Source of the DNA: Nanobdellota archaeon | Lineage (GTDB): Archaea > Nanobdellota > Nanobdellia > Parvarchaeales > Parvarchaeaceae | Assembly (NCBI GenBank): GCA_021836125.1 | Contig: JAKBJF010000003.1 | Coordinates: forward strand, 1-35,611 | DNA length: 35,611 bases | Direction of reading: 5' to 3' | Part shown: one piece after another, positions 835 to 35,611 of the stretch | Numbering within the stretch: the stretch's first letter is position 1 | How the letters are laid out: every line of letters begins with the position of its first letter | The notes under the pieces: model-generated | What the model was told of the DNA's origin: nothing | Databases searched by the model: none | The model's input: the letters and a program-made list of their open reading frames with translations, nothing else | Program-made: the position numbers and the translations under genes

Positions 835-2020
835 ATATCTTGCCTGAACCTGCAAGAGTCCAAACGTTGTCTAATTTTCTTGAAATTATTGCGTTGTCTC
901 CCACGTAGTAAGGAAGAACTGAATTGCTTAATGCAGCTACAACCTTATTGCCGGATACGGCCGTAACTGTAGCTAGAGCTTTGCCGGCAAGAATGTTAAG
1001 GAGGACTACTTCATTCTTTTGAATTGACCTCTTGAATAAGTTCTTTTCTTGTTTCTCCAGAGGGGAATATTCGAATGAAATGCGCGGTTTTAGCTGCGGT
1101 CGATTCTTAACCGATACTATAAGACTCCCTGCAAGATTGTCTCTCCTTGTAAGTGCAGGATCAAGAGCTGTCTGTAGCCCCACTGTCAGCCCTTTTGAAA
1201 CTTTTGACTCTTTGCCAAACTCACTGTGCATATCTATAACTTTGCTCTTAAGCGGCTGCCATCCGTTTTTAACCTGGATTCCAGGGTATATCTCTATTTC
1301 GTCACCAGAGGACAATTCTCCCTCCTTTAAGGCACCGCCGAGTATTCCGCCGACAAGTTCTTTTATAGCTGTGCCTGGGCGATTTGCATCGAAACTTCTT
1401 ACTGCCAGCATAACGGGTGCCTTCTTTGCTACGCTGTTTTCCAAAGGAAACTTGCCTATCTCCTGTATCAACTCGACAATGTTTACGTTAGCAGTAGAAA
1501 ACACAGGGATTATGGGTACATTATCGAAACCGCTATCTGACAAGAACTTCTTTATTTCCTGATAGTTTTCCTTCGCTCTCTGCGGACTCACTATATCCAC
1601 CTTTGTCTGTGCTACGACAAGGTTCTTTATTCCTATTATCCTAAGCGCATTAAGATGCTCTTCGGTCTGCGGTTGTGGACATTTTTGATTTGCTGCGATA
1701 ACAAGTATAGCACCGCTGACCAGAGCGGCACCGCTTAACATTATTGTCATCAATGTCTTATGGCCTGGAGAATCTATTATTGATACCTTTCTGAATAATT
1801 CAGAGGCGGAACCGCATGTCTCGCACTGCTGTTTTCTGCTCAAATAGCCGCACTTTTTGCATTTGTATAATACAAAGTGTGCATAACCCAATCTTATTGT
1901 AATACCCCTCTTTTTTTCCTCGCTGTGACGCAGCGTCGACTCGTTAGTAAGTGCACGCACCAATGTGGTTTTACCGTCAGCAAAACTGCCGACTACGTCT
2001 ATTATTATATTTTCAACCAT
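827..2020 (-). CDS. eif2g: Translation initiation factor aIF2 subunit gamma
   Basis: A 397-residue GTPase that, with alpha and beta subunits, brings initiator Met-tRNA to the small ribosomal subunit. Visible in order: P-loop at residues 11-18, switch I RGITIRLGYA, a zinc knuckle with C54/C57 and C66/C69, the G3 motif DSPGHKT with H87, the signature ILVIAANQKCPQPQT, the G4 motif TKVD at 139-142, then the two beta-barrel domains. Two motifs are unusual: the P-loop reads GSFADGKT where the family has GHVDHGKT, and G4 reads TKVD instead of NKxD. The Walker A lysine and threonine are kept. It overlaps the S6e stop by 8 bp and the PIN gene start by 8 bp, forming a tight translation operon. Confidence 0.96.
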   Translation of the reverse strand: MVENIIIDVVGSFADGKTTLVRALTNESTLRHSEEKKRGITIRLGYAHFVLYKCKKCGYLSRKQQCETCGSASELFRKVSIIDSPGHKTLMTIMLSGAALVSGAILVIAANQKCPQPQTEEHLNALRIIGIKNLVVAQTKVDIVSPQRAKENYQEIKKFLSDSGFDNVPIIPVFSTANVNIVELIQEIGKFPLENSVAKKAPVMLAVRSFDANRPGTAIKELVGGILGGALKEGELSSGDEIEIYPGIQVKNGWQPLKSKVIDMHSEFGKESKVSKGLTVGLQTALDPALTRRDNLAGSLIVSVKNRPQLKPRISFEYSPLEKQEKNLFKRSIQKNEVVLLNILAGKALATVTAVSGNKVVAALSNSVLPYYVGDNAIISRKLDNVWTLAGSGKIYD

Positions 2021-2393
2021 CAGTCTTCTTACCGAGAACCTCTTTAAGGGATTTTTCGCCCTGTTTGGTTATCTTCAAATTAACCTGTGAAGTGAACTGA
2101 CTTATTGTGTTTCCTGCTACAGACTTCTTAAGTCTTATGTTCTCATTGTTCCCAAGTTCTTTCCCAATAAGTATCTTTTTTAGACCTATTCCATCTACGT
2201 CATTCCTCATTGGCATTCCGGTCATATAGCTACCGCCGGTTATCTGTGCTTCATATCCATCCAGACCCATGAAAGAAAGTGCTACGTTTTCGCCGAGCTT
2301 TTTGCCGATTAGAGTTTCCATCTCTTCTGAATTGAGCACTTTATTAAAACTCTCCCCTGTTTTCGGGTCGCTGACAACAATCTTAGTTTCCAT
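2013..2393 (-). CDS. rps6e: 30S ribosomal protein S6e
   Basis: A 126-residue protein of normal archaeal length. Diagnostic parts are the central G-G-S-Y-M-T-G-M-P-M-R-N-D-V segment (family: GGSDKDGFPMR-DV) and the VAGNTISQFTSQVNLKI segment near the C terminus (family: RGNTIS---VQINLK). S6e is a component of the small ribosomal subunit. It is first in the minus-strand operon S6e, aIF2-gamma, PIN, an order common in archaea. The TATA element at 2417-2424 lies about 28 nt upstream, consistent with a leaderless message. Confidence 0.95.
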   Translation of the reverse strand: METKIVVSDPKTGESFNKVLNSEEMETLIGKKLGENVALSFMGLDGYEAQITGGSYMTGMPMRNDVDGIGLKKILIGKELGNNENIRLKKSVAGNTISQFTSQVNLKITKQGEKSLKEVLGKKTDG

Positions 2394-2416: not shown

Positions 2417-2424
2417 TATTTATA
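2417..2424. promoter_or_regulatory. TATA element shared by divergent rps6e and dph2-like genes
   Basis: The intergenic gap is only 57 bp. It holds a single clear box: TATAAATA on the minus strand and TATTTATA on the plus strand. The centre lies about 28 nt from the rps6e ATG (2393) and about 30 nt from the ATG at 2451, so the same element is correctly placed for leaderless transcription both ways. Confidence 0.45.
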
Positions 2425-2450
2425 CCTTTATCTTTGACTAAATATAGTTT

Positions 2451-3137
2451 ATGGAAGTAATGTTTGTTGAAGCGAGATATAACGGCAAGATTAGCGATTT
2501 GTTCATGAATAAGATAAAAGAGGCTTTATCGCAGTATAAAAAAATAAACGCGGTTGCGGCCATACAATACATTGATCAGATGAATTATGTGGTACAAAAT
2601 ATAAAGGAAAAGGAATTCGTTGTCATAAAGTCAAAATACCGCGCAATGTATCCGGGTCAGATACTCGGATGTGACGTGGACGCTGCACGTTGCGAGGATT
2701 GTGATGTAACCCTTGCATTTACACAGGGGGTTTTTCATCTCTTGGGCATACCTATAAAATTGGGCAAACCACTTCTGAACGTAGACCCGGAAAGCGAGAC
2801 TATAACTTTTATTGACGGTAAAGCCGGTGACAAATACCGAAAAAGAGTCCTCCAAGCTATAGGTACGGCACTGTCTGCAAAAAACGTCATGTTTGTGGAG
2901 TCCATGAAAAGCGGCCAAACGTACGGCGTCAATCTTCTTAAAGAAGCGCTAAAAAAACGCGGAACGAAAATCTTTTCTACGATAAGCGATGAAATAAACT
3001 TTAACAGGTTAAATGAGTTTCGGGACATTGACGTCTTCATAAATACGGCATGTCAAAGGATAGGGATAGATGATATGGAAAAACTGGAGAAACCCATAGT
3101 CAATGCAGAAGATCTTGAGCCATATCTATTGAAATAA
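2451..3137 (+). CDS. dph2: Dph2-like diphthamide biosynthesis protein lacking domain 1
   Basis: 228 residues that align from start to end with roughly residues 98-342 of archaeal Dph2, the [4Fe-4S] radical enzyme that moves the 3-amino-3-carboxypropyl group of SAM onto a histidine of elongation factor 2. Recognisable parts are PGQILGCD (C74), GVFHLLGI, KPLLNVDP, and near the end NTACQRIGIDD (C201) and KPIVNAEDLE. C74 and C201 correspond to the second and third cluster cysteines; the first cysteine lies in domain 1, which is missing. An in-frame TAG at 2445-2447, directly before the ATG, excludes an upstream extension. Extra cysteines C81 and C84 follow C74. The fold family is clear; whether it is catalytic alone, needs a separately encoded domain 1, or has another role is open. 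Confidence 0.85.
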   Translation: MEVMFVEARYNGKISDLFMNKIKEALSQYKKINAVAAIQYIDQMNYVVQNIKEKEFVVIKSKYRAMYPGQILGCDVDAARCEDCDVTLAFTQGVFHLLGIPIKLGKPLLNVDPESETITFIDGKAGDKYRKRVLQAIGTALSAKNVMFVESMKSGQTYGVNLLKEALKKRGTKIFSTISDEINFNRLNEFRDIDVFINTACQRIGIDDMEKLEKPIVNAEDLEPYLLK

Positions 3138-3240: not shown

Positions 3241-4179
3241 ATGGCTAAAGAAAACAATAAAAAGAGTGTTGAGAAACCTAAGGCTGAAAAGCCCGCCGAG
3301 GTGCCACAAAAATCGCAAAAAGACAAGAAAAATGGTGATCAGGCAGGCCTTGAACGTTATCTGTCGAGAAATGGCCATTACTTCGTAATCGCTGACGCTA
3401 TATCAGAGTACAAGAGTCAGAAGGGACAGCCTGGTTTTGATCCGAATGAAGTGGCTGCCAAGCTTTACAAACCTTTCCTTTACATAAACGGCAAATTCAA
3501 CAACGAGATGGAAGGAATAATAAACCAGCAGTTAGGTCTGCTTATACAGAATAATGCCGTAACGGAACCTTATCTGAGTAATATGGTCGGTAGAATAGAA
3601 CCTATGCTCGGCAAGTATCGCAATGAACTAATAGCAATGTTGCCAGATGACGCCCATAAGCAGCTTGCTTTTATGATAATGAAAGATAAAAACAAAAAAC
3701 CGGGTCTGGCCAGCAAGATTATGGGAAACCCTGCAATGCAGAGACCTGCCACATTATTACAACTACTTGACAATGTAAACGGGACTGAAGACATGGCAGG
3801 AGACGTAGGAACTGGTTTCTACGACAATATATCTTCAAACAATCCTACGGATTATACAAAAGGCGGCACTATGACCAACGATGAAGCACGTTCGTATATA
3901 GATAAAGGCCGCGCAATGTTCGTGGAAGGTCTTAAAGCCTTGAAAAATACCGGTGCGATGGAAAGAATGAAACAGATAATACTCGGAACGACCGCGAAAC
4001 AACTTGATTACGAGATGAAAAAGATGGATCCAACACACGTTAAAAACGCACTAGCAACTGCAGACCCTGTTGAAGTAATGTCAACGGTTTACCGCGGTCT
4101 GCTGCAAAGACCTGTAAAACAATCAGCAATTGAACAAGAACCCGAATTAAATACCTCCCTTTCAGGAGAGCCTTCTTAA
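3241..4179 (+). CDS. Unrecognised 312-residue soluble protein with charged N terminus
   Basis: I do not recognise a family. The first 35 or so residues are very rich in lysine, glutamate and proline and look disordered. The rest (from about residue 37) is predicted by eye to be mostly helical and globular, without membrane segments or a signal peptide, and has no obvious catalytic motif. The C-terminal 20 residues are again polar and loose. Its expression signals are the best in this part of the window: a TATA box, a short leader with a strong Shine-Dalgarno site, and a perfect terminator-like hairpin that contains the stop codon. This suggests an abundant or well-controlled monocistronic product. 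The neighbours (Dph2-like upstream, transporter downstream) give no functional clue. Confidence 0.8.
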   Translation: MAKENNKKSVEKPKAEKPAEVPQKSQKDKKNGDQAGLERYLSRNGHYFVIADAISEYKSQKGQPGFDPNEVAAKLYKPFLYINGKFNNEMEGIINQQLGLLIQNNAVTEPYLSNMVGRIEPMLGKYRNELIAMLPDDAHKQLAFMIMKDKNKKPGLASKIMGNPAMQRPATLLQLLDNVNGTEDMAGDVGTGFYDNISSNNPTDYTKGGTMTNDEARSYIDKGRAMFVEGLKALKNTGAMERMKQIILGTTAKQLDYEMKKMDPTHVKNALATADPVEVMSTVYRGLLQRPVKQSAIEQEPELNTSLSGEPS

Positions 4180-33866: not shown

Positions 33867-34460
33867 TTAATCGTTGCTTGTCCTATAAACTATACAAATA
33901 GGTAAATCAACTGCCTCTTTTTTGTGGAATCTTGCGGTTCTCTTTAATCTTATGTCGCCGAGCTCATATATCTTGAAGCCTTTCTTTTCAGCAAGCGATT
34001 CTGCAAAGTTGTTATGTTTATACAATACAAAGACGTTTTTAGACATTTCATATGCTTTTTCTAGAAATGTCTCAATGCTGAAATTCGTTTGAAAACCGAA
34101 CGGCGGATTCGACAAAACAACATCATAATTACCATGGACATCGAAAAAATCCGCGCAAAACGAAGCACATTCAGTAAGATTTAGTGCGTTTACATTGTCG
34201 GATGCTATCTCTACCGTTTTCGGGTCTATATCGTACATATCCACTTTTTCAGCACCTAAAAGGGCAGCGCCTATCCCGAGTATCCCATTTCCGCAGCCCA
34301 GGTCCGCGACTTTCATAGACTTTAGTCCGACAATTGAATTGATAAAAAATAGAAACGAGACTGCTGTCTTTATATCAGTTTGATATTGTTCAAATTTTAT
34401 TTTTGGCGTATCTATGGGCTTAAGAGAAGACAATTTTCTGGAAAGATTTAGTCTATCCAT
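33867..34460 (-). CDS. METTL5-like N6-adenine RNA methyltransferase
   Basis: 197 residues with a Rossmann methyltransferase fold: FEQYQTD near the N terminus (family: EQY-T), motif I VADLGCGNGILGIGAALLGA at 51-70, acidic DIDP at 77-80, and the N6-amino catalytic motif NPPFGFQ at 118-124. The order and the flanking GA--VD--D pattern fit the METTL5/archaeal relatives that methylate an adenosine of small-subunit rRNA together with Trm112. A Trm112 gene is not in the window. It overlaps gatE by 8 bp. Confidence 0.88.
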   Translation of the reverse strand: MDRLNLSRKLSSLKPIDTPKIKFEQYQTDIKTAVSFLFFINSIVGLKSMKVADLGCGNGILGIGAALLGAEKVDMYDIDPKTVEIASDNVNALNLTECASFCADFFDVHGNYDVVLSNPPFGFQTNFSIETFLEKAYEMSKNVFVLYKHNNFAESLAEKKGFKIYELGDIRLKRTARFHKKEAVDLPICIVYRTSND

Positions 34461-35611
34461 GTTTTACAAGCTTCGACGCTATCTCATACGCGTCCTTTGC
34501 ATCGAATGAGTGACCCAGTATGTCTCTCAAGTTAGTTATGATCGTGTCCACCCGCATTTCCTTGTTTGAAGTCATCAATTTATTTATTGCGTTTTCAAGT
34601 TCTTTGCGGGATATTTTCTTTAAAGAAAACTTCTCTATTGTTTCCTTTACCGAGTGTGATCTCCCCATAGCAATGCTTTCCATTATGAATCTCGCTGAAT
34701 CCCTCGCTACTGTTCCGTTTGATATAAGTCTTATTATTTCCTCTATGTCTCTGTCGCCTACCAAGTAACCGAATTTTCTTTTTACGTATCTGTAGTCATC
34801 TACCATAATTGAAACGAGCACGCTGAAAGGCACTGAGAATTTTTTATGAAGATCGATGGCTTTCTCGAGCTTGTTTGAGGATATCAGCATATTCAAGAAT
34901 TCCTCGCTTAAACCGTATTGCTTCTCTATCTTTTCTAGACTCAAGTCCGAATACGAAGCCGCACTGTCCATTATCTCTTTGCTGACTTTTACTATCGGAA
35001 GGTCCGTTTCCACGTACATCCTGTCTTTTCCGCCCATTGGCCGCATGAACATGGTAGAATTATCTTCCAAAACAAGTCTAACTTCAGATGGGACTGTGGA
35101 AAGCAGCGATGAAATCCTGTTGTACATATCCGTTAATACCTTCTCTAAAAACGTTTTTACTGCTGGGTCGGATCTATTCTTATTTATTATTGATATTGCG
35201 AATGCATCATTTTCGCCACACTCTAAGTGCTTTGCTATACCGTTCTTTTCCGCTTCGGATATGCCGTACGCTGGTAGTTCATCGGAATGTATTATGCCTG
35301 CACCGTCCTTTATCTTTAGATAGTCACTTACTTCCGTGCCGAATCTCTTGCCTTCAAAAAGCTCTGTACCGAGCAATCCTTTCATGCTCGTTAATCTTAC
35401 GCCTATTATAATCTTGCCCTCTGAATTGCTTTTCTTTATTATATTGGATTCGGTCGCTGCAAAAACATCGTTTATTTCCTTGTATTCAAGCGCCTTCATT
35501 TCTTTTAGAAGATAATTCTTTTCCTTCTGTATTTGAAGAAGAGAAGACTGCCGTTTGTATTCGTTCATTATTACTCTGTCCATCTCCCTTATATTTTGGA
35601 AGCAGATCGGA
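34453..35611 (-). CDS. gatE: Glu-tRNA(Gln) amidotransferase subunit GatE, C-terminal part (runs off right edge)
   Basis: At least 386 codons to the window edge; the frame is open through the last base, so the start lies outside. Visible are the end of the catalytic cradle (MNEYKRQSSLLQIQKE), the GAD-like insert domain with LLGTEL, RFGTEVSDYLKI and GIIHSDELPAYGI, DNSTMFMRPMGGKDRMYVETD, and the helical YqeY-like tail that contacts tRNA. GatDE converts Glu-tRNA-Gln to Gln-tRNA-Gln, so this archaeon makes Gln-tRNA indirectly. An internal ATG at 35583 is not the true start. The stop overlaps the METTL5-like gene by 8 bp. Confidence 0.94.
   Translation of the reverse strand, partial: PICFQNIREMDRVIMNEYKRQSSLLQIQKEKNYLLKEMKALEYKEINDVFAATESNIIKKSNSEGKIIIGVRLTSMKGLLGTELFEGKRFGTEVSDYLKIKDGAGIIHSDELPAYGISEAEKNGIAKHLECGENDAFAISIINKNRSDPAVKTFLEKVLTDMYNRISSLLSTVPSEVRLVLEDNSTMFMRPMGGKDRMYVETDLPIVKVSKEIMDSAASYSDLSLEKIEKQYGLSEEFLNMLISSNKLEKAIDLHKKFSVPFSVLVSIMVDDYRYVKRKFGYLVGDRDIEEIIRLISNGTVARDSARFIMESIAMGRSHSVKETIEKFSLKKISRKELENAINKLMTSNKEMRVDTIITNLRDILGHSFDAKDAYEIASKLVKHG

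What the first reader, a model, noticed from the sequence alone, without database searches (positions are those of the whole stretch)
2451..3137. Dph2 homologue without domain 1 and its cluster cysteine
Seen: the protein starts where archaeal Dph2 domain 2 begins, keeps the second and third cluster cysteines (C74, C201), and an in-frame TAG just before the ATG rules out a longer start. Known: Dph2 uses three cysteines, one from each domain, to hold a [4Fe-4S] cluster with an open SAM-binding iron. Inference: either domain 1 is a separate gene elsewhere (split gene), the extra cysteines C81/C84 replace the missing ligand, or the protein no longer makes diphthamide.
Basis: partly seen in the sequence, partly recalled or inferred. 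Interest (0 to 1): 0.7.

Follow-up and report, generated by a model that had tools for sequence, protein, structure and literature searches.

The report
Split diphthamide enzyme gene in Parvarchaeota
The apparently truncated gene is the back two-thirds of the diphthamide-starting enzyme Dph2, whose front third (with the missing iron-sulphur cysteine) is a separate intact gene about 143,000 bases away, an old inherited gene split already reported for such tiny archaea.

Summary
The ORF at 2451-3137 holds Dph2 domains 2 and 3 only, with two of the three cluster cysteines. No domain 1 can lie upstream: an in-frame TAG and the divergent eS6 gene block it. The genome has a stand-alone 114-aa Dph2 domain 1 with the missing cysteine (YGACD) on contig C32. 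In a second assembly of the same species both halves lie on one contig, 143 kb apart, so this is no assembly artefact. EF2 with the target-site motif, Dph5 and Dph6 are present.

The split is not local. Of 146 phylum genomes with a hit, 10 have one uninterrupted gene. Four have the halves back to back around one stop codon, with a ribosome-binding site in the three read. The rest give only partial matches. In a tree, all sampled split pairs form one clade (100/99), separate from unsplit relatives, so one origin is likely. Both halves evolve under strong purifying selection. C81/C84 add to the three ligands rather than replacing one, and occur only in this family.

Split dph2 is published for Nst1 and, via a review, for Parvarchaeota. 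Two-chain cluster assembly is inferred, not shown.

The parts
2451..3137 (+). dph2 C-terminal gene (domains 2 and 3; cluster cysteines C74 = Ph Cys163 and C201 = Ph Cys287)
   Evidence: Pfam PF01866 131.8 bits positions 64-289; 6bxm residues 92-309; AlphaFold model pLDDT 88.8 matches Dph2 6q2d residues 89-316, Z 21.6, 224 residues aligned
2419..2424 (+). TTTATA, possible archaeal TATA box 27 nt before the ATG (would give a leaderless or nearly leaderless mRNA)
   Evidence: seen in sequence; inference only
2445..2447 (+). in-frame TAG one codon before the start
2670..2672 (+). codon of C74, cluster ligand
   Evidence: invariant in 50/50 sequences
2691..2702 (+). codons of C81 to C84 (CEDC), extra cysteine pair found only in the own family
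   Evidence: 9/9 in own family, 0/41 outside with both
3051..3053 (+). codon of C201, cluster ligand
   Evidence: invariant in 50/50 sequences
2013..2393 (-). eS6 gene, divergent neighbour; followed by aIF2 gamma (827-2020); this context is kept in nearly all C-half loci of the own family
   Evidence: Pfam; neighbourhood scan

Best explanation
This is the C-terminal gene of a split dph2. Two separately encoded and translated proteins make up one archaeal Dph2: a 114-aa protein (domain 1, first cluster cysteine) and this 228-aa protein (domains 2 and 3, second and third cysteines). Most likely they associate without any covalent joining. Each active site then holds a [4Fe-4S] cluster with one cysteine from the small subunit and two from the large one. 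The open iron binds SAM, an aminocarboxypropyl radical is made, and it is put on the target histidine of EF2; Dph5 and Dph6 finish diphthamide. The natural form would be two small plus two large chains, in place of the Dph2 homodimer. Shown here: both genes, complementary coverage, the three cysteines, the pathway genes, selection on both halves, and a conserved and probably single origin of the split. Inferred: assembly of the two chains, cluster formation and catalysis.
For: Own genome: PF01866 matches at C15:2451-3119 (positions 63-289) and C32:27487-27663(-) (positions 1-59). The second is a 114-aa ORF with YGACD that aligns to 6bxm residues 4-87 (E 2e-12), while this ORF aligns to 92-309, so the halves are complementary with no overlap. 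A second assembly (99.7% DNA identity over 6.1 kb) carries both halves on one 316-kb contig at 55,078 and 198,366. Two single-contig class genomes also have them far apart (G036, G048). EF2 has LHEDAIHRGPAQ; Dph5 scores 186 bits and Dph6 224 bits. Median dN/dS is 0.019 (C) and 0.040 (N) over 7 close pairs. All 24 split or back-to-back pairs sampled form one clade, 100/99. The N half precedes rnhB in most own-family loci and in several other families; the C half is divergent from eS6-aIF2 gamma in nearly all own-family loci. Where the halves are back to back, the three junctions read (G031, G106, G107) show a GGAGG-type site just before the stop and restart.
Against: No biochemistry or expression data. 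The N half carries a tail of about 17 residues after the domain, so a simple two-piece re-assembly has some extra sequence to place. Two-chain modelling could not be run. A set of near-complete class genomes shows only the N half, which could mean loss, divergence or assembly gaps.
Confidence: 0.9

Rival explanations
1. The 228-aa protein works alone, with C81/C84 standing in for the missing ligand; the domain 1 gene does something else.
For: C81 and C84 lie 7 and 10 residues after C74 and are both present in 9/9 own-family sequences.
Against: Outside the family the split protein lacks the pair, yet the domain 1 gene keeps its cysteine in 50/50. Both genes are kept under strong selection and occur together in most genomes.
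Confidence: 0.03
2. The halves are decaying remnants or have been turned to a new use, and EF2 is no longer modified.
For: Gene splitting and genome reduction are described for DPANN archaea (PMC6349945); some near-complete class genomes show only the N half.
Against: dN/dS 0.02-0.04; all three cysteines invariant; Dph5, Dph6 and the EF2 target-site motif kept in the own genome.
Confidence: 0.04
3. An assembly or sequencing error split one normal gene.
For: The own assembly is 35 contigs and 66% complete.
Against: Neither half is at a contig end. A second assembly has both on one contig 143 kb apart. The split recurs in the relatives examined, with conserved separate neighbourhoods.
Confidence: 0.01
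4. The two products are joined after synthesis (split intein or RNA trans-splicing) into one chain.
For: N. equitans is known for trans-joined tRNAs and many split genes (PMC3655853).
Against: Each ORF has its own start and stop. The N-half tail is about 17 residues, too short for any intein half of usual size (general knowledge). In three related genomes the halves are back to back with a ribosome-binding site at the restart, as expected for two free proteins.
Confidence: 0.02

Closest known systems
Archaeal Dph2, single chain (P. horikoshii 3LZD, Ca. M. nitroreducens 6BXM, M. smithii 6Q2D; arCOG04112)
   Same: Same fold of domains 2-3 (Z 18.5-21.6), same three cluster cysteines, same pathway partners EF2, Dph5 and Dph6
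   Different: Here domain 1 is a separate protein from a distant gene; own family has an extra CxxC after the second ligand
Split DPH2 of nanoarchaeon Nst1 (Nst 222-440; Podar et al. 2013, PMC3655853)
   Same: DPH2 encoded by two separate genes
   Different: Nst1 is a hyperthermophilic nanoarchaeon; split site there not compared here
[quoted passage not shown] 2018, as cited in PMC6349945)
   Same: Same enzyme, same lineage (Parvarchaeota), same kind of split
   Different: The primary paper is not held, so its split sites and sampling could not be compared; the clade test, the rnhB link and the back-to-back forms were worked out here
Eukaryotic Dph1-Dph2 heterodimer
   Same: Two different polypeptides make one enzyme
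   Different: There each subunit is a full-length homologue with its own cysteine set; here one subunit is cut into two

Membership tests
Archaeal Dph2 (PF01866 / arCOG04112), split form | Domain 1 with first cluster cysteine (Ph Cys59, GACD motif) | tested here: met
   Present in trans: P0002, PF01866 positions 1-59 at 45.6 bits, over the 33.2 cut-off; C74 aligns to the 3lzc cysteine at the Cys59 spacing
Archaeal Dph2 (PF01866 / arCOG04112), split form | Domains 2 and 3 with second and third cluster cysteines (Ph Cys163, Cys287) | tested here: met
Archaeal Dph2, canonical single chain | All three domains in one uninterrupted polypeptide | tested here: not met
   Two genes on different contigs, 143 kb apart in a second assembly
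Archaeal Dph2, canonical single chain | NCBIfam TIGR03682 equivalog cut-off (202.8 bits) | tested here: not met
   The halves score 146.7 and 54.3 bits apart; the cut-off is set for whole proteins
Archaeal Dph2 (PF01866 / arCOG04112), split form | Pathway context: EF2 target histidine, Dph5, Dph6 in the genome | tested here: met
Archaeal Dph2 (PF01866 / arCOG04112), split form | [4Fe-4S] cluster, SAM cleavage to an ACP radical, EF2 modification | not testable with these tools
   Needs purified proteins
Archaeal Dph2 (PF01866 / arCOG04112), split form | Dimer of Dph2 units | not testable with these tools
   Only single chains can be modelled here

The most novel reading that the evidence does not exclude
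A radical-SAM-type [4Fe-4S] site whose three cysteine ligands come from two separately encoded, non-covalently assembled proteins, fixed once in an ancestor of a large DPANN clade and kept ever since, with an extra family-specific CxxC beside the cluster in Parvarchaeota.
Probability: 0.8. Interest if true: 0.45.

Novelty: new member of a known kind. Interest (0 to 1): 0.3.

Why it matters
It settles that the truncated-looking gene is not a broken enzyme and that its genome probably still makes diphthamide. It also shows that a cluster site spread over three domains tolerates, and has long kept, a chain break between domains 1 and 2. The natural two-piece enzyme would let one add or withhold one cluster ligand in trans. 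For annotation, such genes should be called Dph2 small and large subunits rather than partial or absent.

Tried and rejected
Frameshift or missed start: rejected, because eS6 fills the upstream space and a TAG stands in frame. Assembly break: rejected by the second assembly. C81/C84 as replacement ligands: rejected by distribution. Loss of the pathway: rejected for the own genome. A second split gene in the window (gatE at 34453-35583): rejected; the frame is interrupted by a run of N in the contig just past the window end, and the N-terminal part follows directly. The first tree used some wrongly cut rows and was redone. A search for C halves in nine genomes without one found none, but that call had no positive control.

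Full report
What was checked. The ORF at 2451-3137(+) is real, 228 aa long, and is Dph2 without domain 1. Its two cluster cysteines, C74 and C201, match P. horikoshii Cys163 and Cys287 (ligands named in PMC11048331). An AlphaFold model made from 32 aligned sequences (pLDDT 88.8) matches domains 2-3 of every solved archaeal Dph2, best 6q2d at Z 21.6 over 224 residues, with the next unrelated fold at Z 8.7. The in-frame TAG is at 2445-2447. The eS6 gene starts 57 bp upstream on the other strand, so no domain 1 is hidden there.

Where domain 1 is. Searching the own genome with PF01866 gives a second match, C32:27487-27663(-), positions 1-59 of the profile. It is a 114-aa ORF with the sequence IQLPDGF...YGACD...NFGHA, which aligns to 6bxm residues 4-87, while the window ORF aligns to 92-309. 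The two genes therefore cover Dph2 end to end with a gap of four residues. The N half overlaps the rnhB gene downstream by 20 bases and stands beside an nth-like gene. A second assembly of the same species, JAKAPK010000001.1 (Nanoarchaeota archaeon YF1.bin65; 99.7% identity over 6.1 kb), carries both halves on one contig, 143 kb apart. Titles of the nearest relatives (Candidatus Parvarchaeota, Ca. Acidifodinimicrobium mancum) place the genome in Parvarchaeota.

The pathway. EF2 is complete and has LHEDAIHRGPAQ, the motif that holds the diphthamide histidine (motif from general knowledge). Dph5 and Dph6 score above their curated cut-offs. Among seven close pairs of relatives the median dN/dS is 0.019 for the C half and 0.040 for the N half, so both are under strong constraint.

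How wide the split is. In the 54 of 55 relatives with a match, no uninterrupted gene was seen; most show one N-half and one C-half match at separate places. In 148 phylum genomes of at least 85% completeness, 146 match: 10 with one uninterrupted gene, 4 with both halves in one frame around one stop codon, and the rest with partial matches only; the list of matches was cut in its N-half part. Three named Micrarchaeota genomes have a single gene; two named Woesearchaeota genomes have two.

One origin. A tree of concatenated halves (50 rows) puts all 24 split or back-to-back pairs in one clade (100/99). Nine of the ten uninterrupted genes of the same class form another clade (100/100) and Micrarchaeota a third (100/99); the tenth, G168, is a long branch beside the solved structures and its place is unsure. 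The simplest reading is one split in an ancestor of the split clade. The uninterrupted genes of the class would then be old or acquired copies rather than re-fusions; one genome, G115, has an uninterrupted gene plus a separate C half. Four back-to-back forms sit inside the split clade, so adjacency may be kept or regained. Two early-branching pairs, G039 and G049, have the halves close together around one related 93-95-aa membrane-type protein. In the three back-to-back junctions that were read (G031, G106, G107), a GGAGG-type site precedes the restart, which speaks for two proteins and against stop readthrough.

The extra cysteines. C81 and C84 are both present in 9 of 9 own-family sequences. 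Outside it no sequence has both, though 6bxm has a cysteine at the C84 column. The three canonical cysteines are present in 50 of 50. They are therefore an addition of this family, of unknown use.

What is known. Split DPH2 was reported for nanoarchaeon Nst1 (Table 1 of PMC3655853), and a review cites Narrowe et al. 2018 for split Dph1/2 in some Parvarchaeota, Pacearchaeota, Woesearchaeota and Altiarchaeota (PMC6349945). The finding is therefore a further member of a known kind. I did not find in the held library the breadth, the clade test, the link of the N half with rnhB, or the back-to-back forms, but the primary paper could not be read.

What stays open. Assembly of the two chains, cluster formation and activity are inferred from homology and have not been shown for any split Dph2 that I could find. 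Six class genomes show only the N half together with Dph5, and G060 shows the N half without either; whether the C half is lost, diverged or unassembled there is not known.

Noticed in passing
window 34453-35583 and G000:C15:35584-36390: gatE looks truncated at the window's end, but the contig has a run of N there and the N-terminal part follows directly; an assembly gap, not a split gene.
   Followed up: yes
L002:816-1794, L036, L045, L051, L061, L066-L068 and others: The stand-alone Dph2 domain 1 gene sits directly before rnhB (RNase HII), often overlapping it, in most own-family loci and in several other families.
   Followed up: partly
L048:2584-3998 and L060:1949-4061: In two early-branching split pairs the halves flank one related 93-95-aa protein that looks membrane-bound, with a shared 90-aa gene after the C half.
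   Followed up: partly
G032, G040, G060, G072, G097, G112, G128: Near-complete class genomes with a Dph2 N half but no C half found; all but G060 keep Dph5.
   Followed up: partly
G115:C1:995210-996142 and C1:741126-741674: One genome has both an uninterrupted Dph2 gene and a separate Dph2 C half.
   Followed up: no
window 3241-4179: 312-aa protein next to the C half, no Pfam match; homologues lie near the C half in several own-family loci, in either orientation.
   Followed up: no
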